From the IMG/VR virus record IMGVR_UViG_3300037010_000704, positions 1-58,868 of that record: a stretch of 58,868 nucleotides of DNA; one strand, 5' to 3'. Numbering within the stretch: position 1 is the stretch's first letter; the number at the start of each line of letters is the position of its first letter. Positions 39,980-50,470 of the stretch are shown here, piece by piece. This DNA comes from a virus. The notes under the pieces are model-generated. The model did not search any database. It was not told where the DNA came from and saw only the letters and a program-made list of their open reading frames with translations. The translations under genes were made by a program, and so were the position numbers.

Positions 39980-40045
39980 ATCCTGGGTCCACCTTAGAGG
40001 GAATCCTGAGCTTCAAGTTCCTCTAGTGAGGAAGTGAAAATCACG
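39980..40045. promoter_or_regulatory. Divergent gap upstream of the PKD adhesin and the beta-helix fibre
   Basis: This 66-bp gap lies between genes in opposite directions and must contain start signals for both. On the plus strand AAGTTCCTCTAG (40014-40025) partly resembles the TAAGTTCTA of the repeated promoter motif, but GTGTA is absent. No other motif is convincing. Confidence 0.3.
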
Positions 40046-41971
40046 ATGGCTGCTACCAACAACACCTTCCCGCCCCTTATCAGTGGGGCGTCCTCTGACC
40101 TCATCGGCCATAAGCAACTCTATGGTCAAGCGGTCCTAGCGTCCTGCCTGATTCAAACTTCACAGTCCGATCAGTTCTTCAACCCTGAGGCTGGTCAACT
40201 TACTGGGTATGCCTCGAATGGATCTTACTACCAGCAAGGAGTGCTCGTCCCCCTCCGCGCCTCCTGGTTCTCGGAGGCCCCTGGCCCCTGGCGGTCGGGA
40301 TCACCTGAGTTCCCCACCAGGGCTGTCGTCCTCGTCACCGATGCGGGCCTGTCCATCCTCGACCGGGACAACGGGCTGGAGATGTGGATGATGTTCATGC
40401 GGGGTGACATGCTGGCATACACCAACAACTTCCTCGCCGGTCAGCAGACACCCGCTGGGTTCACCCCCAGGGAGGTCACCTACCAGAATGGCATCATCAG
40501 CGTCACCCAGTATCCCGACCCCGGCAGCACCTTCACGGGGATCTTCACCCTTCACCTCGACTTCCTGCATGACAACATCTATGCCGACTGCTCCATCAAT
40601 GAAGGTGGGGGCGTGATCGTGCCTCCTACGCCTATCACCACGGTCACCATCGTCAGCCCGACTGTTGATTACCCCGTGGGTGCCCCAGTCACCTACGTCG
40701 CCGCCCCGGTCACCCAGGGCTATCCGCCTGCCGACCACGTCGTTGAATGGACGTTTGACGACGGCTCCTCGGCATTAGGCATCTCGGTCACAAAGACCTG
40801 GGCAACCGCTGGCCCCCATATGGCCTCCGCCAAGGCGACCAACGTCACCACGGGCGGGGTCGGTGAGGCTTCCAAGACCATCAACATTTCCTCAGTGTCC
40901 ACTTCCCTGAATGCCCGACCCTGGGTGTCAACGGGATCAAAAATGTTCGCCTCTGTGGCCAGCACAGCCAACACGAGCTTCCCCGTCGAGTTTGAGCTAC
41001 TCGTCGCCGGGGACTTCCTGGTGAACCTCTACGACGTCAACCACCCCCAGACCATCGTCACTTACAACACGGTCACGGGTGAGCGTCGGGAGTATGGAGA
41101 CCAGTTGACCACCATCGGCACCCCCGCAGGTGCCTGGGCACTCCACAGCGGCCCCAACGCAGGAAAGATCCTGATTGTGGGTTGCCAGGGTGGTCATTAC
41201 GGCATCTTCGACCCTCACACGGGCATCGTTACTATGTCCCAAACCCTCATCTCATCCTCGGGTGGAGCACAGGGGTACGACTTTCAAAAGGGCTACAAAT
41301 TTCCCAACACACTCATGCTCGATGGCAGGGTGTTCTTCGCCGGGGGCCTGGGTCTTGCCTTCAGGGGCAAGATCTACGACCCTGTTGCGGATACCTGGGA
41401 GAACGACGACGGTGTGGGCATCAGCGGCGTCATCGCCTCGGTATTCACCATGCCCTCGGGCAACCTGTTAGCCATCACCCTTGGGCCGAACCCCCAGAGC
41501 TACATCAAAGACAGTATGACGGGCCTGTGGAGCCCGGGGCCTACCCCGCCCGTCAGCATGACGGACAACCACAGCTATTGCCAGATGCCTGATGGGGCCA
41601 TTTTCACGACCACGCTGGGCACTACAGCGGTGGCGTCGATCATGCGTGAGGGTGGGGTCTTCAGATCCATGACAGCCCCTTACCCCTACCTTGAGCAGGA
41701 CAGCACTACGGTGGATGGTGTTGTCGCCGAATACGTCATCACTGCCCCGGACGGCATCGTGGTGAACCTCGGGGGCTACGGCGTCAACCACTATGCCATG
41801 AAGAACTACGAGAACCCCAAGGTGGCCTACTACACACCAGCCCAGGGGGATGTGTGGGTCGTCGGGGCTCCCTTCAACGCCCTCAATCGCACCCACCGTG
41901 GCGGCTTCTGCAACGGCAAGTTGTGGCGTGTCGGGGCGACGGGGATCCTGGAGTATCTCGTCTGGGCCTAA
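40046..41971 (+). CDS. PKD- and propeller-containing virion adhesin
   Basis: I chose ATG 40046 (GAGG upstream with long spacing); a GTG at 40034 is possible. The 641-residue protein has an N-terminal fibre-like domain, a PKD domain at about 215-285 (PTVDYPVGAPVTYVAAPV, WTFDDGSSALGISVTKTWAT) and a C-terminal propeller-like section (about 290-641). The latter has kelch-type blades (GKILIVGCQGGHYGIFDP, GRVFFAGGLGLAFRGKIYDP, NLLAITLGPNP). It is the only plus-strand gene between 7.3 and 58.9 kb, and its stop overlaps that of the hydrolase gene. A receptor-binding or head-decoration role is inferred. Its orientation suggests a separate promoter and perhaps separate acquisition. Confidence 0.8.
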   Translation: MAATNNTFPPLISGASSDLIGHKQLYGQAVLASCLIQTSQSDQFFNPEAGQLTGYASNGSYYQQGVLVPLRASWFSEAPGPWRSGSPEFPTRAVVLVTDAGLSILDRDNGLEMWMMFMRGDMLAYTNNFLAGQQTPAGFTPREVTYQNGIISVTQYPDPGSTFTGIFTLHLDFLHDNIYADCSINEGGGVIVPPTPITTVTIVSPTVDYPVGAPVTYVAAPVTQGYPPADHVVEWTFDDGSSALGISVTKTWATAGPHMASAKATNVTTGGVGEASKTINISSVSTSLNARPWVSTGSKMFASVASTANTSFPVEFELLVAGDFLVNLYDVNHPQTIVTYNTVTGERREYGDQLTTIGTPAGAWALHSGPNAGKILIVGCQGGHYGIFDPHTGIVTMSQTLISSSGGAQGYDFQKGYKFPNTLMLDGRVFFAGGLGLAFRGKIYDPVADTWENDDGVGISGVIASVFTMPSGNLLAITLGPNPQSYIKDSMTGLWSPGPTPPVSMTDNHSYCQMPDGAIFTTTLGTTAVASIMREGGVFRSMTAPYPYLEQDSTTVDGVVAEYVITAPDGIVVNLGGYGVNHYAMKNYENPKVAYYTPAQGDVWVVGAPFNALNRTHRGGFCNGKLWRVGATGILEYLVWA

Positions 41972-43013: not shown

Positions 43014-43598
43014 TTAGATAGTAGGCATGTGGTGAGGCTGGTTCTTCTTCCCTGCGGCCTTCTTGGGTGGAGGCTGTGGGGGGTCCGGCAGGGTTACCGG
43101 GGGGTTGGCCTGGACCTGGGCTTGAAGAGGCACTTGGGGAGGCGGCATGGGAGCGGGGGTGACCACGGAGGGCGGTGGGCTGCTGGGAGGGGCCGGGTCG
43201 GCGTAGTCCTCCTCGGGGTGGGTGTCCTCCCAGGCGGCTTCATCCCCATCGGCGATGATGTCGGAATCAAGGGGGACGACCTCAACCGGATGGGCGGGGG
43301 GGTCAATGAGGGTGGAACCCTCGGCCTCCATGCGGGCGCGAGCCTGGGCTTCGATGGCCCACCCGATGTCCGTGTAGTGGATGTTGCCATCAGCGTCGAT
43401 ACCATCATTGGGCTTGAGGTTGTAGATGGTCGTCAGGTGGTCAATCCACCCCTGAAGGGCCTGATTGGCAGCTTGGCCAGCCTGGATAGCAGTGAAGGCG
43501 GCTGCCCGAGCCCGGACCTCCGCCTCCTGTGCATTCTTCAGATCATCAACCAGCTTCTTGTGGTAGCTCAGATGTTCGGGGTTAAGAACAGTTGGCAT
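43014..43598 (-). CDS. Protein with proline-rich C-terminus, 194 aa
   Basis: I chose ATG 43598 (MPTVLNPEHLSYH, after GGAA); a longer frame to 43652 overlaps the end of tnpB and has no ribosome-binding site. Residues 10-60 form a charged helix (KKLVDDLKNAQEAEVRARAA). The last 75 residues are a proline-rich linker (DPAPPSSPPPSVVTPAP) ending in a basic tail (KKAAGKKNQPHHM). Such helix plus proline-rich proteins often link tail parts or bridge subunits. It lies immediately downstream of the TnpB insertion, so its start region may have been changed by it. Confidence 0.75.
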   Translation of the reverse strand: MPTVLNPEHLSYHKKLVDDLKNAQEAEVRARAAAFTAIQAGQAANQALQGWIDHLTTIYNLKPNDGIDADGNIHYTDIGWAIEAQARARMEAEGSTLIDPPAHPVEVVPLDSDIIADGDEAAWEDTHPEEDYADPAPPSSPPPSVVTPAPMPPPQVPLQAQVQANPPVTLPDPPQPPPKKAAGKKNQPHHMPTI

Positions 43599-43617
43599 AT
43601 TTTCCATAAAAGGTCTG

Positions 43618-44850
43618 CTACTTTCTAAGTGAACACAAGTGTTCACTCTCAAATTCCTGCTTCAACGACCGCAGTTTCGACAGGGCTTCCGCCCCGCCCA
43701 GAGCCGCAATCTCCACAGGCGTAACTTCGGGACTAGCCGTCCCTAGTTTGTTGGTTACGAACAAGCCATAATCACGAAGATTTAGGCTTGCATTAAAGTC
43801 CCTATCCTCAACAACACCACAGCTTTCGCAGATGTATTCCCGCTCATCCAAACCCATTTGGGCCTTTACTGATCCACAAGCGTTGCAACGCTTTGTGGAA
43901 GGGAAAAAACGATCTGCAATAATCAGGTTTCTACGATAAAGTGGTGCCTTGTATTCAAGCTGCCTTCGGGTTTCGGCGAAGCCGACATCCGATACTGCAC
44001 GACCCCAGAGGGCCAACATACCACTTACACTTAAGTCCTCTATTACCACCGTTTGGTTTTCACGGAGTATAGTAGACGTAAATTTATGAATGAAATCTTT
44101 CCTGATGTTAGTAATGTGTTGATGAAGCCTTGCAAGGCGTCCTGCGGACTTCTTGCGATTGTTGGACCCTTTTACTTTCCGGGAGTGCTGCTTAGAAAGA
44201 CGCCGTAGGCGTTTTAACTTAGCTTTTAACGGCTTTGGCGCTGAAAGCGCCAAACCGTCAGAGGTAACTGCGAAGGTTTTCAAACCTAGGTCAACGCCAA
44301 TAATGGTGGTTGAGGGTGCCGCCTCGCGGCGGTAGTCATCAGGAAGCCGGACTTGAACTGAAATAAACCAGTCATTGGCAGTCCTGGACACCGTTCCTGA
44401 CATGATCTTGCCAGTAAAACGGAGTTCCTCCGTCATTTTTATTTTACCTATGACGGGGAGACAGGCTACCAGCCCGTCAAGGTCAAACTTATCGTTAGAC
44501 AAATAAAAGCTATCGTGTTCCCCCTTTTTCTTAAACTTAGGAAAGCCCACCCGGCGCTTCGCGCCCTTGGACTCATAACAGCGTTTCAGGGCTTTTTTAA
44601 GATTAGCAAAGGGCTGCTGGTTTGCATCCTTCGGACTTTCATATATCCACGGAAAGGACTCGCCCTTGAGGGCATTGAACTGTTTCTTAAGATCATTCAT
44701 TGAGACTTTAGCCACACCCTGACTCTTTAGCTCGGTGTATTGGGCCAAGGCCCAATTCCAAGCAAAGCGTGAACATCCTGCTGCCTTCGCCAACGCCTGA
44801 CGCTGTTCCAGCGTCGGCGTCAGGCGGATTTTGTGGGCTAGGGTGAACAT
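43618..44850 (-). CDS. tnpB: TnpB RNA-guided nuclease
   Basis: The 410-residue protein has the helix-turn-helix start (KIRLTPTLEQRQALAKAAG), the WED/REC-like middle and a complete RuvC nuclease. Asp187 lies in GVDLGLKTFAVTSDG, Glu271 in VVIEDLSVSGM and Asp349/351 in DRDFNASLN. The four-Cys zinc finger (C322-C325 and C341-C344) is intact. The length fits ISDra2-type TnpB. These enzymes use an RNA made from the element's right end to cut DNA next to a short target motif. ATG 44850 follows AGAGGA. With no TnpA nearby, it may persist as a homing device or have been adopted by the phage, for example to cut competing phages. The last codons probably double as guide-RNA scaffold. Confidence 0.95.
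   Translation of the reverse strand: MFTLAHKIRLTPTLEQRQALAKAAGCSRFAWNWALAQYTELKSQGVAKVSMNDLKKQFNALKGESFPWIYESPKDANQQPFANLKKALKRCYESKGAKRRVGFPKFKKKGEHDSFYLSNDKFDLDGLVACLPVIGKIKMTEELRFTGKIMSGTVSRTANDWFISVQVRLPDDYRREAAPSTTIIGVDLGLKTFAVTSDGLALSAPKPLKAKLKRLRRLSKQHSRKVKGSNNRKKSAGRLARLHQHITNIRKDFIHKFTSTILRENQTVVIEDLSVSGMLALWGRAVSDVGFAETRRQLEYKAPLYRRNLIIADRFFPSTKRCNACGSVKAQMGLDEREYICESCGVVEDRDFNASLNLRDYGLFVTNKLGTASPEVTPVEIAALGGAEALSKLRSLKQEFESEHLCSLRK
43628..43647. repeat. Inverted repeat at the tnpB 3' end (right-end hairpin)
   Basis: AGTGAACAC and GTGTTCACT form a perfect 9-bp stem with a two-base loop, inside the last ten codons of tnpB. IS200/IS605-type right ends carry such a hairpin, and the guide RNA of TnpB ends near it. 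The bases just beyond (lower coordinates, minus strand) would serve as guide. Confidence 0.7.
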
Positions 44851-44947
44851 GCTTTCCTCTAATCAACACTTCTGAGTAGACTACTGGTTGCTGAGTCGGA
44901 CTCCTGGCGATCAGGATACCACACCCCTTGTGGGCTAGGCATCAACT

Positions 44948-45256
44948 TCAATTTTTACTCTGGGCAAGCTCGGCCAGACGCTCGGCCTCGATGTCCTCGG
45001 TCTCCCAGTCATCCATGAGGCCCGCGAACTTTAGGATGGTCTGGCGAGGGCCGTCATTGAGTTCCGCCAGGGAGCGTGTCGTCACCCGGTCCTTCTTCAC
45101 AGAGAGCACCTCACCCGTGTCGGCGTCGTATTCCACGAGTTCCCTATGAGCCTTGATGAGAGGGTCGTCGCCGAACTCGGAGAACACCTCGATACGCCAG
45201 GAGTGCCGGACAACCACGGACCCACGCTTCTCATTTTTGCTAACGAATACAGACAT
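44948..45256 (-). CDS. Hypothetical protein, 102 aa
   Basis: ATG 45256 follows AGGAG. The product is basic at its start and acidic at its end (WETEDIEAERLAELAQSKN), with a strand-rich middle (SVVVRHSWRIEVFSEFGDD, then LVEYDADTGEVLSVKK). The last helix is rich in Glu and Ala. It is the last gene of the appendage cluster before the TnpB insertion, and its stop is three bases from the candidate TTGAT. No family is recognised; a small virion or chaperone-like protein is possible. Confidence 0.75.
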   Translation of the reverse strand: MSVFVSKNEKRGSVVVRHSWRIEVFSEFGDDPLIKAHRELVEYDADTGEVLSVKKDRVTTRSLAELNDGPRQTILKFAGLMDDWETEDIEAERLAELAQSKN

Positions 45257-45264
45257 AGGGGCTC

Positions 45265-46023
45265 CTAAAAGGTCAAAAACATCCTGGTAGCATCATACGC
45301 CACCTGGAAGGCATTGTTCTGAAATGCGTTGGCCTGGAAGGCTCCAGGGCCACCTGTCGTCATGCCGCGAAAGGCCGCGATGACGTGGGCGTAGTAACTG
45401 GCGGGGGAGCACGTCATCCTATCGAAATAGGTGCCCGTCTCCGAGACAACCTTGTCGAGAGAGGCTGAAGGCCCGCCCGTGTAATAGTCGGTGTTGGACT
45501 GACGTTTGGTAAAGCCGGTGTCCCCCTCGGTGACCACCACGCTGTTGGTCACATCCTCTGTCCAGAAGCAGAATAGATAGGCGTTGGGGAAGTTTGTGAC
45601 GATGGCGTTGGAGGTGTGATTGAGGGCTGCGGCCCCCTCGGCGGACCCAAAGGAGTAGGAGTCCAATACTGTATTGATGTTCTGGTCCATGTTTGCCACC
45701 ACATGCACGGTGACAACCGTGTAGCCCGACTCACCTGTGGTGATGGTGATGAGGCCGATAGTCTCCGTGGCTTTGGCGATGGCGTAGAACAGGTGAATGG
45801 TGCTCGTGGCGTTGGAGATGTAGACGCCTGACCCTACCTCCCTATAGGTGTTGCTCCCCCCTGCTGCGTTGTCCGAACACGTCGTCGTCTGCAAGGAGGT
45901 TCCATCCGAGCGGAAGGCGACAATGATGAGATCCCCGGCAGTCACATCTACGTTCGCCTGAGTCGTGGTAGAGTCACTCGGCGTGGTGTATGAGTTCCTG
46001 AGGAATGGGGGCGAAACTGCCAT
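45265..46023 (-). CDS. Tail appendage/virion decoration protein, 252 aa
   Basis: The body (residues 1-220) is a beta-sandwich-like sequence of the kind found in phage and bacterial surface proteins (TTQANVDVTAGDLIIVAF, TIHLFYAIAKATETIG). The end has a short near-repeat of Ala-Phe-Gln-x-Asn (GAFQANAFQNNAFQVAYD), which looks like a C-terminal attachment tag. ATG 46023 lies three bases after the previous stop. No enzyme motif is seen. It belongs to the run of fibre genes from 50.9 to 44.9 kb and is probably a small fibre or decoration protein. Confidence 0.75.
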   Translation of the reverse strand: MAVSPPFLRNSYTTPSDSTTTQANVDVTAGDLIIVAFRSDGTSLQTTTCSDNAAGGSNTYREVGSGVYISNATSTIHLFYAIAKATETIGLITITTGESGYTVVTVHVVANMDQNINTVLDSYSFGSAEGAAALNHTSNAIVTNFPNAYLFCFWTEDVTNSVVVTEGDTGFTKRQSNTDYYTGGPSASLDKVVSETGTYFDRMTCSPASYYAHVIAAFRGMTTGGPGAFQANAFQNNAFQVAYDATRMFLTF

Positions 46024-46026
46024 GGG

Positions 46027-46452
46027 CTACACCCAGGTCATCGGTGGGAGCAGATCTACCATTTCTTCCACAGTGATGATGGGCTTCTCACCAGCCTGAA
46101 CACCATTCAGGTAGGCTGTCGCAGTGTCCCACACGGCGTCCCTCCACTTCACCCCGGCCTTGCCCTCAGTGGCAAACCGAGGGTTCTCCGAGGTTGCGTA
46201 GGAACACAGGGACAAGATGCCGTCGTAGTTGCGACTCGCGGCCACGGAGTCCATGTGATCCTGGATCGCCTGGATGTAGCCAGCGATGAGGGCCTCCAGG
46301 TTGAAGGGGGTGACCTGTTCAGGCTGATTTCCGGCTTCCACCCAGGCGATGTAGGCCAGGAAATCTGGATCTTGGTCGGATTGACACGGGGCTACCACAA
46401 CCCCATCGGAGTTGCGAGTCACGGTGCCGGAGCTAGGATCAAGTGAATACAT
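46027..46452 (-). CDS. Tail fibre accessory protein, 141 aa
   Basis: ATG 46452 comes two bases after the preceding TAA; a longer frame begins within that gene and is less likely. After an N-terminal beta part (SLDPSSGTVTRNSDGVVV), the product has a helical domain. Its signature, IQDHMDSVAASRNYDGIL and PRFATEGKAGVKWRDAVWDT, is of the type shared by many phage tail fibre assembly and DUF4376-like proteins. These usually help fold or attach the fibre encoded next to them. Its place inside the fibre gene run supports this role. Confidence 0.75.
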   Translation of the reverse strand: MYSLDPSSGTVTRNSDGVVVAPCQSDQDPDFLAYIAWVEAGNQPEQVTPFNLEALIAGYIQAIQDHMDSVAASRNYDGILSLCSYATSENPRFATEGKAGVKWRDAVWDTATAYLNGVQAGEKPIITVEEMVDLLPPMTWV

Positions 46453-46454
46453 GG

Positions 46455-47435
46455 TTACTGGTCCGTAGAGATCCAAGCCGAGATGAAGTCGAGGCCAACT
46501 GCACTAGCCGTGGCATTGTTGGTCCGCCAGAGCAGTGGGGCCGTTAGTAGGGTGGTGTTCGAGGGTAGCTGGGTGCCTGGAGTGGCAGCAGTCAGGGTTC
46601 CCTCAGCTACATGCCCGGTGTTCAACCTGGTCACCTTGTAGCCAACAGCGTTATTCGCCTTCGGGGAAGCGAACAGGATGAGTTCGTAAACATCCACGCT
46701 CAGAGTGTTCGCGGGAAAGTTAGCCCCAAGGTCGATAGGTGTCTGGGCCGCACTTCCACCATAGAAGATTTTGAGGTTGGTGTCGGAGGCACCATGCCCG
46801 ACTCCGATAGAGTTGGTGAGGGTTGAGGGCTCAACATTGGTGGGAGCGCCTGTGGCTGACGAGATTCCCACAAACTGACGGGCACCTGATACCGTCGCCG
46901 CATCAGAAGTCATGAAGCGAATGCAGAGGAAGAATCCCCCCATGTCTGGCACACCTGATCCAGGAACCCCGAGGGTGTATTGAGCCACGGGGACACGCAG
47001 TGATACCAGTGACCCTGCGGTAGTGGATGATACATAGCCGAGGCGCTTGATTCGGGTTGCGAAGTTCGTGGTTGCCACGTTCCTGGCGGTGGCAGTGCCC
47101 ACCGTAGTGAACGCGGTGGCACCCCCCGTGAGGGTCGAAACTGTGGTGGCGTTGCCAGGAGGGCTCCACATGGAGACTTTATCCTGGCCAAGGAAGTTCT
47201 GGAGGATGGTACTGGTTCCTGATGGGCCGATCACCTTAGGAACAGCACGGCCCGCGACGAGCCTGGAGTAGAAGGTGAGCTTACCAGCGGCGGGTGGTAA
47301 TGGGTCCGTTGAACCCGCCGTCATGAGGATGCCCCCGGAGTCCACCACATGGTCGGAGTTCCAGTCGGAGGGAAGGACTACGGAGGTGTCCCCTCCGTCA
47401 GCCTGGGTTAGAGCCTTTGCATGTTTGAGGGCCAT
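46455..47435 (-). CDS. Tail fibre protein, 326 aa
   Basis: The N-terminus MALKHAKALTQADGGDTSVV followed by LPSDWNSDHVV is the type found in phage tail fibres that begin with a short trimer-forming part (DWN.DH). The body is a beta sandwich rich in Gly, Ser and Thr (RLGYVSSTTAGSLVSLRVPV), and GFFLCIRFMTSDAATV gives strands of a lectin-like fold. There is no enzyme motif. It is separated by two bases from its neighbours, so it is made with the other fibre proteins. Likely a receptor-contacting fibre. Confidence 0.8.
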   Translation of the reverse strand: MALKHAKALTQADGGDTSVVLPSDWNSDHVVDSGGILMTAGSTDPLPPAAGKLTFYSRLVAGRAVPKVIGPSGTSTILQNFLGQDKVSMWSPPGNATTVSTLTGGATAFTTVGTATARNVATTNFATRIKRLGYVSSTTAGSLVSLRVPVAQYTLGVPGSGVPDMGGFFLCIRFMTSDAATVSGARQFVGISSATGAPTNVEPSTLTNSIGVGHGASDTNLKIFYGGSAAQTPIDLGANFPANTLSVDVYELILFASPKANNAVGYKVTRLNTGHVAEGTLTAATPGTQLPSNTTLLTAPLLWRTNNATASAVGLDFISAWISTDQ

Positions 47436-47437
47436 CG

Positions 47438-48385
47438 TTAATACCCCTTGGCGACAGCGACGAGCCTTGCCTTTGAAGTTCCTGAGAAATACTGGAAGCC
47501 AAGGATATCAGTCTTGGAGGCCCCGGTGTTGCCCGAGTAGCTTGCGATGTCGGAACCGTAGGCCACTCCGGTCCCCAGTGTCACCACACGGCCCCCAGTG
47601 GCGTCCTGGGCGAGTTCCAGCGTGAGCTTCTGGCCATCCGTGCCCCCGGTGAAGTTGATCGTCGCAGGCCCCGTCAGGGCGATGCGGGCGACAGGGGTGG
47701 TAATGGTGGTCATGTCGATATTGATGGTGGCTGCGTAGGCAATGGTGGTCACGCCAGCCGTGGACATGGCGGCGAGCACGTCGGCGTTCAGATTGGACCA
47801 GAGGGGTGCGGCTGCGGCGGAGCCGTTGCCCGTAGAGGTCAGATGTTGCTTGACCGTGCTTGTGTTACCCGCTAGGCGAGTAGGGGCACCACCAGAGGCA
47901 CCGTAGATCATGTCTCCCAAGGTGGTCATGGGGTTGGTCATACCGGAGCCACCGGGGGGGACGGCCCAGGTTGCGTCCTCCCGAAGGAACTTCGTGGTGC
48001 CAGCGGTGGCTCCAGGATCAGGGACAGCCCCGGCTGCATGGGAGGCCCCGGAGGCTACGAAGACGGGAACATCAGAACCCTGGATGGCCCGGAATGTCGG
48101 TGACCCTGCTGAACCGTTAGGCGCAGCGAAGAAGGTCTTGGCGGTCTGAGAAGGGAGGTTGGGGACGGCCCCAACAGACAGGGTTCCACAGCCGACACCA
48201 CCCGGAGTGACGATAGCGCCATTCAGGGCGGTGGTCGAAGCCGTGGAATTGGTGACGTTGAGGATTCCCCCAATAAGCGACTGCTTGGCAACATAGAGCC
48301 CGCCCTTGGTTTGGATGGACCCTGTGTTGGTTGCCGTGCAGTCCGTTGTGTCCTGGACTAGGACTGGGGTGATGAACCTCGCCAT
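47438..48385 (-). CDS. Tail fibre protein, 315 aa
   Basis: This Gly/Thr/Ala-rich protein has segments shared with phage side-tail fibres. TTALNGAIVTPGGVGCGTLS is the common motif of fibre shafts in which repeated data-like blocks are trimerised. GATAGTTKFLREDATWAVPP and MTTLGDMIYGASGGAPTRLA are standard fibre repeat motifs. The C-terminus (FSGTSKARLVAVAKGY) ends in a compact tip. The start has no strong ribosome-binding site (ATGG only), so it may be coupled to the upstream fibre. Receptor unknown. Confidence 0.85.
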   Translation of the reverse strand: MARFITPVLVQDTTDCTATNTGSIQTKGGLYVAKQSLIGGILNVTNSTASTTALNGAIVTPGGVGCGTLSVGAVPNLPSQTAKTFFAAPNGSAGSPTFRAIQGSDVPVFVASGASHAAGAVPDPGATAGTTKFLREDATWAVPPGGSGMTNPMTTLGDMIYGASGGAPTRLAGNTSTVKQHLTSTGNGSAAAAPLWSNLNADVLAAMSTAGVTTIAYAATINIDMTTITTPVARIALTGPATINFTGGTDGQKLTLELAQDATGGRVVTLGTGVAYGSDIASYSGNTGASKTDILGFQYFSGTSKARLVAVAKGY

Positions 48386-48394
48386 TTATCCATC

Positions 48395-50470
48395 TTATCC
48401 GATTACATTCACGGTGTAGTTAGTTCCACTCGGCGGAGCCACCGAAAACACGATGGTCGTCTGGTTCACCGTGTTGTAGAGAATGTTCGGATAGACCTCT
48501 TCGTTGCTCGCCGTGGGGTCAGTGACAACTGCCTTGCAGGTGGCGCTGTTGAGGTTGTGGTTGATGGCGAAGCTCGTGGTCGTTCCGTCACCAGTGATGG
48601 TTCCAGTCGCCCTACCAGCGGCGTTTAGGTTGGTGCGAGCGCCCGCCGCCGTGGAAGACCCGGTGCCGCCGTTGAGGACGGGAAGCTGACCGGCGATGCC
48701 CGTGCCCACGTTCAGGTTGATCTGGGTGAAGGTCACGCTGGTGGTGTCGATGGTGATCGCACCGACCGTGGAGATATACCAGGAAGTCCCGTAGCCAGTG
48801 GTGCCCTGAGCGACCTTTACGATCATACCGTTGTAGGCCAGGGTGGTGCTGCCAGAGGCATAGTCGGAGGGACGGGTCAAGGCAGATCCCGCAGCGTTCC
48901 AGATCCACAGGCCGTTCTGGCTGGCGGTGGTCTGGCCGGTAAGGAGCACACGCTGACCAGCGGACATGGTGAGGCCGTCGAGGGTCGCGCCGGGAGAGGA
49001 GATGTTCACGTTGGTCGTCACGACCACAGCAGCGGTGCGCTGCTGACTGGGGAGGTGGGCATAGCCGGTGGCGTTGACGCCGGAACCACCCTGAGACAGA
49101 GGCACGATGCCCGTAGTGATCTTGGCGAAGTCGAGATTCGGGATGTCGCTAGCGGCGAGGTTGGAACCCGAGGTGACGATACCGCGATCGTTGACAGTAA
49201 CCTTGGTCCAAGTCTGGGCGACCACACCGGATACCGGCAAGTCGGCATTCACCAGGGCACGGAGGCTGAGGCCACCCGTGGAGCCGTTGGGAGATCCCCA
49301 GAACTGGTTCTGCGCCTGCCCGGTGGAGATGTCAACACCGAAGCCGCCGTTAGCCTTGCTGAGAACGCCCGTGACAGCCGAGGCGTTGCCGAGGGGCAGG
49401 GCACCGTAGGTGGGCTCCACGCCGGTTCCACCGGAGAGGAGCACCTGATTGGCAGTGGCAGAGGACTTGACACGAAGGGCAGTGCCGTTGAACTCCAGGG
49501 TATTTGTGCCCGTGAGGTTCACGGAGAACACATTGCCTGCGAGGTTCAGGCCGTTGCCGTTGGTGTAGCTGTTGGATGCACCGAACTGTGTGAAGGTCAG
49601 GGCAGAGGTGCCTATGGTGATTGTGCCCGTGGTCGTCATGATCCACTGGGTGACGGCGTTGGCACCGGATTCCACGAACATGAAGGCACCGGGGGTAACA
49701 GCGCCGGGGCCAGCGGTGGTGGTGTTGAAGTCGGTGGCGCGGGTTAGAACCCACTTGGAGTTAGCGGAACCCAGGTCGGTCACGACGTAGATACCGTTGT
49801 TGGCCGGGGTGGCTTCGTTCTTGACGAGCACTCGGGCACCCACCACGAGGGTGTAGGCGGAGGTTCCGTCGATGAGGGTGGTCGTCAGGGCACCGTTGGA
49901 GGAAGCCGTGAGGGTTGCACCCACACCAGCCGCGCCGTTGGAATAGACGTTGGAGGGTAGAGCACCCGTGGTGGCCAGGGCGACGGATCCCTTGGGGTCG
50001 AACCCTGCGGCGAGGGCGTCGGCGTAGTTCTTGTTTACGGCGTCCGTGCCAGCCGAGGGGGTGTTGGTGATGGACACGGAGGTGAAGGCGGCTCCACCCG
50101 AGCCATCGCGCTGCACCAGGGTATTGTTTGTGGCCAGGGCGGTTGAACTGGACAGCTTGGTGTAGTCTGCGGCAGACATCGTGCCGGGAACGGAATCCGA
50201 GGCAGCCTGCACGTTGAGGATGGGAGCCAGGGCGGTGCCAGAGTTGGTGAGGGCGGTGCCGACACCCACACTGACCACATACTGGTCATCCAGGGTGATT
50301 GTGCGGGTGGCCAGCTTAACCTTCAGACGGCCCTGACCATCGCTGCCAGCCCCGGTGTTGAACCAGACCTGACCAACTAGGGGTGAACTGGGATCGGAAC
50401 CCAGGGGATCAATGACAGCGTTCTGGAGCTTGTTTCCCAGAAGATTGACATTATTAAGAAAACGCGGCAT
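48395..50470 (-). CDS. Major tail fibre protein, 691 aa
   Basis: The N-terminus (PRFLNNVNLLGNKLQNAVID) and the block PSSPLVGQVWFNT are typical starts of fibre shafts. The middle has repeated segments (GARVLVKNEATPANNGIYVV, GQRVLLTGQTTASQNGLWIW) with the same fold, i.e. an internal duplication of a strand-rich domain. The end (ATGTITGDGTTTSFAINHNL) leads into a small C-terminal module (KAVVTDPTASNEEVYPNILY) like that of the 126-residue protein upstream. It probably forms the long fibre of the appendage cluster. It is in line with four shorter fibre or appendage genes downstream. Confidence 0.85.
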   Translation of the reverse strand: MPRFLNNVNLLGNKLQNAVIDPLGSDPSSPLVGQVWFNTGAGSDGQGRLKVKLATRTITLDDQYVVSVGVGTALTNSGTALAPILNVQAASDSVPGTMSAADYTKLSSSTALATNNTLVQRDGSGGAAFTSVSITNTPSAGTDAVNKNYADALAAGFDPKGSVALATTGALPSNVYSNGAAGVGATLTASSNGALTTTLIDGTSAYTLVVGARVLVKNEATPANNGIYVVTDLGSANSKWVLTRATDFNTTTAGPGAVTPGAFMFVESGANAVTQWIMTTTGTITIGTSALTFTQFGASNSYTNGNGLNLAGNVFSVNLTGTNTLEFNGTALRVKSSATANQVLLSGGTGVEPTYGALPLGNASAVTGVLSKANGGFGVDISTGQAQNQFWGSPNGSTGGLSLRALVNADLPVSGVVAQTWTKVTVNDRGIVTSGSNLAASDIPNLDFAKITTGIVPLSQGGSGVNATGYAHLPSQQRTAAVVVTTNVNISSPGATLDGLTMSAGQRVLLTGQTTASQNGLWIWNAAGSALTRPSDYASGSTTLAYNGMIVKVAQGTTGYGTSWYISTVGAITIDTTSVTFTQINLNVGTGIAGQLPVLNGGTGSSTAAGARTNLNAAGRATGTITGDGTTTSFAINHNLNSATCKAVVTDPTASNEEVYPNILYNTVNQTTIVFSVAPPSGTNYTVNVIG

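What the first reader, a model, noticed from the sequence alone, without database searches (positions are those of the whole stretch)
43618..44945. Lone TnpB with intact catalytic residues and candidate ends
The RuvC residues (Asp187, Glu271, Asp349/351) and the zinc finger are complete, but no TnpA is present. A TTGAT before a left hairpin and a 9-bp hairpin in the last codons give plausible ends. The unit sits between genes and leaves a fully open downstream gene, so it may be a homing or adopted nuclease. The guide would begin in the leader of the proline-rich protein gene.
Basis: partly seen in the sequence, partly recalled or inferred. Interest (0 to 1): 0.68.

Follow-up and report, generated by a model that had tools for sequence, protein, structure and literature searches.

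The report
Phage lone IS607-type TnpB guided nuclease

Summary
In detail: an intact 410-aa TnpB lies at 43618-44850(-), with complete RuvC and zinc-finger residues and no TnpA in the 58.9-kb viral record. The interpretation needs changing. The 3' end of tnpB folds strongly (z about -4) and matches RAGATH-18, the guide-RNA family of IS607 TnpBs, full length but below Rfam's cut-off. In a tree of 68 TnpBs the window falls in the IS607 clade, sister to a lone TnpB on a Betaproteobacterial plasmid and next to Campylobacter/Helicobacter IS607 TnpBs. A loop-tail pseudoknot that covaries across relatives (GTTC/GAAC, GCTC/GAGC, GCTA/TAGC) fixes the right end at 43615, so the guide would be 43614-43595, ACCTTTTATGGAAAATATGC, spanning the start codon of the Pro-rich gene. 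TTGAT is the ISDra2 (IS605) motif, occurs twice in the leader and is probably irrelevant. A better left-end candidate is AGGAG (44905-44901), the published motif of most tested RAGATH-18 TnpBs. Joining it to the right flank restores an ideal ribosome-binding site. The left end remains unproven because no empty site was found. [quoted passage not shown] New member of a known kind.

The parts
43618..44850 (-). tnpB, 410 aa, intact RuvC (D187, E271, D349/D351) and zinc finger
43615..43750 (-). predicted reRNA (guide RNA) scaffold inside the 3' part of tnpB; MFE -56.4 kcal/mol, z = -4.06
   Evidence: longer stretch z = -4.17
43654..43719 (-). RAGATH-18 (RF03064) core, model positions 1-71 of 71, 25.1 bits (below gathering score 44.9)
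43734..43737 (-). GCTA in the loop of a 5-bp hairpin (43743-43729); pairs with TAGC of the tail (pseudoknot)
43628..43647 (-). terminal hairpin AGTGAACAC-TT-GTGTTCACT, between the GAAGCAGGAA box and the tail
43615..43621 (-). right-end tail GTAGCAG (contains the tnpB stop codon); last two bases AG = inferred recombination core; right end at 43615
43595..43614 (-). predicted 20-nt guide, ACCTTTTATGGAAAATATGC, spanning the Pro-rich gene's start codon (ATG 43607-43605)
44901..44905 (-). AGGAG: preferred candidate left flank / target-adjacent motif; element would then be 44900-43615 (1286 bp). Unproven
   Evidence: published motif in PMC11061315
44857..44861 (-). TAGAG: alternative left flank, directly upstream of the tnpB start, as seen in lone phage TnpBs without a left end
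44941..44945 (-).
   Evidence: second copy at 44866-44862
43014..43607 (-). downstream Pro-rich gene, 197 aa, intact, no good Shine-Dalgarno of its own now
44948..45256 (-). upstream neighbour, 102-aa ORF, intact

Best explanation
A lone IS607-clade TnpB module (transposase gone) sits in the tail-gene region of a phage related to Acidobacteriota jumbo phage Tunturi_5. Its RAGATH-18-type guide RNA is encoded within the last ~135 nt of tnpB and ends at 43615; the following ~20 nt are read as guide. TnpB loaded with this RNA would cut any DNA holding the uninterrupted site, that is a motif ending in AG (most likely AGGAG) followed by ACCTTTTATGGAAAATATGC, and so any co-infecting relative without the insert. 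Repair from the insert-bearing copy would spread it (homing, or gene drive). Its own copy is spared because the guide is preceded by GTAGCAG instead of the motif. Shown here: protein, phylogeny, RNA fold, right end. Inferred: left end, motif, transcription, cleavage, homing.
For: Intact catalytic residues. Window in the IS607-type clade of 40 rows (96/96 support), sister to a plasmid lone TnpB with the same kind of tail, L007 (99/90), and these two grouped with Campylobacter/Helicobacter IS607 TnpBs (95/94). RAGATH-18 match at exactly the 3' end of tnpB, E = 5e-4 for this family in this record. Fold z = -4.06. Tail/loop covariation, 24 of 33 perfect against a shuffle mean of 13.2 and maximum of 22 in 20,000 shuffles. 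Distant multi-copy IS607 elements whose shared DNA stops exactly at the same AGTAGCAG. A single AGGAG in the leader, and AGGAG is the motif of 18 of 22 strains tested with RAGATH-18 TnpBs. The AGGAG|ACCTTTT-ATG junction gives a textbook ribosome-binding site. TnpB acting as a gene drive has been shown for IS200/605 in plasmids (PMC11870625).
Against: No empty site, no second copy, no RNA data. The left end is a choice between candidates. RAGATH-18 is below Rfam's gathering score. The published AGGAG motif was measured on other, distant TnpBs. No viral contig was found that carries the guide as a target with a motif (44 exact 16-mer hits, none extended or flanked by AGGAG).
Confidence: 0.7

Rival explanations
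1. IS605/ISDra2-type lone TnpB with TTGAT as left motif.
For: TTGAT lies just after the 102-aa ORF's stop codon, before a 5-bp hairpin; hairpin at the right end; NCBIfam's IS200_TnpB model scores slightly above its IS607 model, both far below cut-off.
Against: The IS607 clade holds the window and none of the IS605-tailed TnpBs. The tail GTAGCAG is unlike the TTCAA/TTCAC/GTCAA tails of IS605-type relatives. TTGAT occurs twice in the leader.
Confidence: 0.08
2. Decaying passenger: the remnant of an IS607 insertion with no present function, kept only because it is recent or neutral.
For: No transposase and no recognisable full left end; close relatives often carry broken TnpA. PMC11061315 reports 30% of IS607 TnpAs as pseudogenes.
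Against: tnpB, the guide RNA fold and the tail pseudoknot are all intact after a long branch (0.85 changes per site), in a genome where idle DNA is usually lost.
Confidence: 0.17
3. Adopted regulator or defence nuclease of the phage: TnpB-RNA controls the Pro-rich gene or excludes rival phages without being copied by homing.
For: The guide spans the start codon of the neighbouring gene; nuclease-dead TnpB relatives (TldR) are phage regulators (PMC13418256, listed).
Against: The catalytic site is intact, unlike TldR. At its own locus the guide is preceded by the tail, so self-binding is not expected. Only one match to the guide in the record. Rival exclusion and homing are hard to separate from sequence.
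Confidence: 0.15

Closest known systems
IS607 TnpB with RAGATH-18-derived reRNA (ISFba1 and relatives, PMC11061315)
   Same: TnpB of the IS607 branch; RAGATH-18-type guide RNA at the 3' end; AG-ending motif plausible; intact RuvC triad
   Different: No TnpA; the RNA lies inside the tnpB reading frame, whereas ISFba1's lies downstream of it; RAGATH-18 score below Rfam's cut-off
IS607 TnpBs of Campylobacter/Helicobacter plasmids (L017, L009), about 41% identical
   Same: Same RNA core and a loop-tail pseudoknot; nearest transposase-bearing relatives in the tree
   Different: They carry a serine recombinase TnpA and end in GGAACGG (GG core)
Lone TnpB of Sulfuricystis multivorans plasmid pSTJ2 (L007), 44% identical
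   Same: Sister in the tree; lone; tail ends TAGCAG; inserted between genes
   Different: No left end at all: tnpB starts 3 nt after the previous stop codon
ISDra2 TnpB (IS200/IS605; PDB 8h1j, 8bf8, 8exa)
   Same: Same fold family and catalytic residues, RNA-guided nuclease
   Different: Other branch; an IS605-type tail is not found at the right end here
TldR (nuclease-dead phage TnpB-like regulators)
   Same: Phage-borne TnpB relative
   Different: Catalytic residues are intact here

Membership tests
IS607-clade TnpB | Groups with TnpBs of IS607 (serine-recombinase) elements in a tree | tested here: met
   clade of 40 rows, 96/96, no IS605-tailed rows inside; sister L007 99/90
IS607-clade TnpB | RAGATH-18 guide RNA at the 3' end | tested here: inconclusive
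   full-length model match at the expected place, 25.1 bits against gathering score 44.9; undoubted IS607 relatives (L002, L011) also score only about 29 bits
IS607-clade TnpB | Right-end tail pairing with the loop of the 5' hairpin | tested here: met
Complete IS607 transposon | Serine recombinase TnpA upstream of tnpB | tested here: not met
Complete IS607 transposon | GG core at the right end | tested here: not met
   tail is GTAGCAG, AG core; AG also occurs in TnpA-bearing L086
IS200/IS605 TnpB element | Tail of TTCAA/TTCAC/GTCAA type and position in the IS605 part of the tree | tested here: not met
IS200/IS605 TnpB element | Y1 HUH transposase | tested here: not met
RNA-guided nuclease (TnpB/OMEGA) | Complete RuvC D-E-D and zinc finger | tested here: met
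RNA-guided homing nuclease | Cuts the uninterrupted site and is copied into it | not testable with these tools
   needs experiment; no target-bearing relative found
TldR | Loss of RuvC catalytic residues | tested here: not met

The most novel reading that the evidence does not exclude
Lone IS607-clade TnpBs of phages repeatedly drop the transposase, change the right-end core from GG to AG, and settle between a gene's Shine-Dalgarno sequence and its start codon, so that the ribosome-binding site itself (AGGAG) serves as target motif and the guide always reads a start codon. This would be a recurrent class of RNA-guided elements that home to ribosome-binding sites. Evidence: a start codon 2-12 nt past the right end in 10 of 21 AG-tailed against 3 of 27 GG-tailed elements, background 7% (p = 0.006); TnpA absent in 8 of 9 AG against 7 of 21 GG (p = 0.014, or 0.07 for viral records only); at least 4 label changes on the tree. 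The pattern was noticed before it was tested, and some tail calls are noisy.
Probability: 0.3. Interest if true: 0.62.

Novelty: new member of a known kind. Interest (0 to 1): 0.38.

Why it matters
It corrects the class, the right end and the likely target motif of a phage-borne RNA-guided nuclease, so that a guide, a motif and an empty site can be tested directly. If the wider pattern holds, it explains how transposase-less TnpBs persist in phages and what chooses their insertion sites.

Tried and rejected
(1) Right end at TTTTATGGAA (43611-43602), by likeness to the GGAACGG tails of relatives: first favoured, then rejected because multi-copy elements end exactly at AGTAGCAG and the tail-loop pairing fits only GTAGCAG. 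(2) TTGAT as left motif: occurs twice, IS605-type, rejected. (3) Empty site by synteny: Tunturi_5 (L003) and L004/L005 keep the surrounding order but lack both flanking genes, so no base-level junction could be read. (4) Direct searches with tnpB, the 102-aa ORF, the 266-aa ORF or the 1265-aa protein in viral contigs found no close kin. (5) Guide 16-mer in viral contigs: 44 hits, all consistent with chance, none with motif or extension. (6) Idea that the insert split one gene (102-aa ORF + Pro-rich): one in-frame join exists, but both look like complete small phage proteins; not pursued. (7) A nested pairing GUUAC/GUAGC in the minimum-energy fold: by eye not conserved in relatives, unlike the pseudoknot.

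Full report
Observation. The window is a 58,868-base IMG/VR viral record. tnpB (43618-44850, minus strand, 410 aa) is intact and single-copy, with all three Pfam domains of the family. Neither a Y1 transposase nor a serine recombinase is encoded in the record, which is only a fragment of a larger genome.

Setting. The surrounding genes match the tail region of Tunturiibacter jumbo phage Tunturi_5 (e.g. 52% and 42% identical proteins) and two IMG/VR contigs, L004/L005. All three lack tnpB, but they also lack the genes on either side of it, so they show that the region is variable without showing the junction.

Which TnpB. The closest relatives by tblastn (40-45%) are mostly from IS607 elements with a serine recombinase, not IS605. 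A maximum-likelihood tree of 68 TnpBs puts the window in a clade of 40 that excludes every IS605-tailed protein (96/96), sister to a lone TnpB on a Sulfuricystis plasmid (L007, 99/90), and these two with Campylobacter and Helicobacter IS607 TnpBs (95/94).

Guide RNA. The last ~135 nt of the element fold far better than shuffles (z = -4.06). cmscan finds RAGATH-18 there, full length, 25.1 bits (gathering 44.9; E = 0.059 over all of Rfam in 1.5 kb; E = 5e-4 for this family alone in the whole record). Undoubted IS607 relatives score only about 29 bits. RAGATH-18 RNAs are the guide RNAs of IS607 TnpBs (PMC11061315). One difference: that paper describes the RNA as independent of the coding sequence, whereas here it lies within the tnpB frame, as in several relatives.

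Right end. IS607-type members end in a 7-nt tail, NNNNC[A/G]G, after a terminal stem. Four bases of the tail pair with the loop of a hairpin upstream of the core: GTTC/GAAC in most, GCTC/GAGC in some, GCTA/TAGC in the window and L125. Over 33 sequences 24 pairings are perfect, against 13.2 on average and 22 at most in 20,000 shuffles (related sequences are not independent, so this is not a probability). Independently, multi-copy elements L029, L086, L101 and L125 share DNA that stops exactly at AGTAGCAG, and L086 carries an IS607 recombinase. The window has GAAGCAGGAA-N31-AGTAGCAG once, with none in shuffles. The right end is therefore 43615, and the guide starts at 43614, seven bases before the ATG of the Pro-rich gene (43607).

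Left end and motif. TTGAT occurs twice in the 97-nt leader and is the motif of the other branch. The AG tail suggests a target motif ending in AG. Of RAGATH-18 TnpBs tested by others, 18 of 22 strains use AGGAG and 4 use GAGGG (PMC11061315). That AG tails go with AGGAG and GG tails with GAGGG is my inference. The leader has one AGGAG, at 44905-44901. Joined to the right flank it gives AGGAG-ACCTTTT-ATG, an ideal ribosome-binding site for a gene that now has none. Comparable left junctions can be read by eye as GGAG in L086, GGGAG in L125 and AAGGAG in L093. However, several lone phage TnpBs have no left end at all, similarity beginning at their start codon, so TAGAG just upstream of tnpB is an alternative. 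I put about 50% on AGGAG.

Function. The intact nuclease, the RNA and a guide that copies the flank are the parts of a site-specific homing device or gene drive, as shown for IS200/605 TnpB in plasmids (PMC11870625). Cleavage, transcription and homing are inferred. No target with a motif was found among viral contigs, which is uninformative since no close kin are in the collection.

A wider pattern, to be treated as a lead. Among IS607-clade elements in hand, AG tails go with a start codon 2-12 nt downstream (10 of 21 against 3 of 27 with GG; background 7%; p = 0.006) and with absence of TnpA (8 of 9 against 7 of 21; p = 0.014, or 0.07 in viral records only), and the AG label changes at least four times on the tree. 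The idea came from the same data; some automatic tail calls are noisy, and the window itself was dropped by the IS605 filter. If confirmed, these lone TnpBs use ribosome-binding sites as landing sites. A search of the paper library found no report of this.

Verdict. Real, intact and ordinary in kind: a transposase-less IS607-clade TnpB in a phage, a new member of a known kind.

Noticed in passing
L029 1601-1764; L101 about 1035-1196 (also L129): Stand-alone copies of a ~165-nt reRNA with no tnpB next to them, nearly identical to the 3' end of the L086 element: tnpB-less guide-RNA elements in phage contigs.
   Followed up: partly
window 44948-50470: A block of small tail-fibre-like genes (691, 315, 326, 149, 252 and 102 aa) lies where Tunturi_5 and L004/L005 have almost nothing: an accessory cassette in the tail region, next to which tnpB sits.
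   Followed up: partly
window 1-58868: The record is a distant relative of Tunturiibacter jumbo phage Tunturi_5 (PP885688.1), suggesting an Acidobacteriota host and a much larger genome.
   Followed up: partly
window 40034-41971 (+): A 645-aa ORF on the opposite strand whose N-terminal ~160 residues match a 164-165-aa protein in the relatives; the rest (about 450 aa) is an extension absent there.
   Followed up: no
L025 against L071/L087/L131: Very close IS607-clade TnpBs in which only one has AG instead of GG at the right end: a natural pair for testing whether core and target motif change together.
   Followed up: partly
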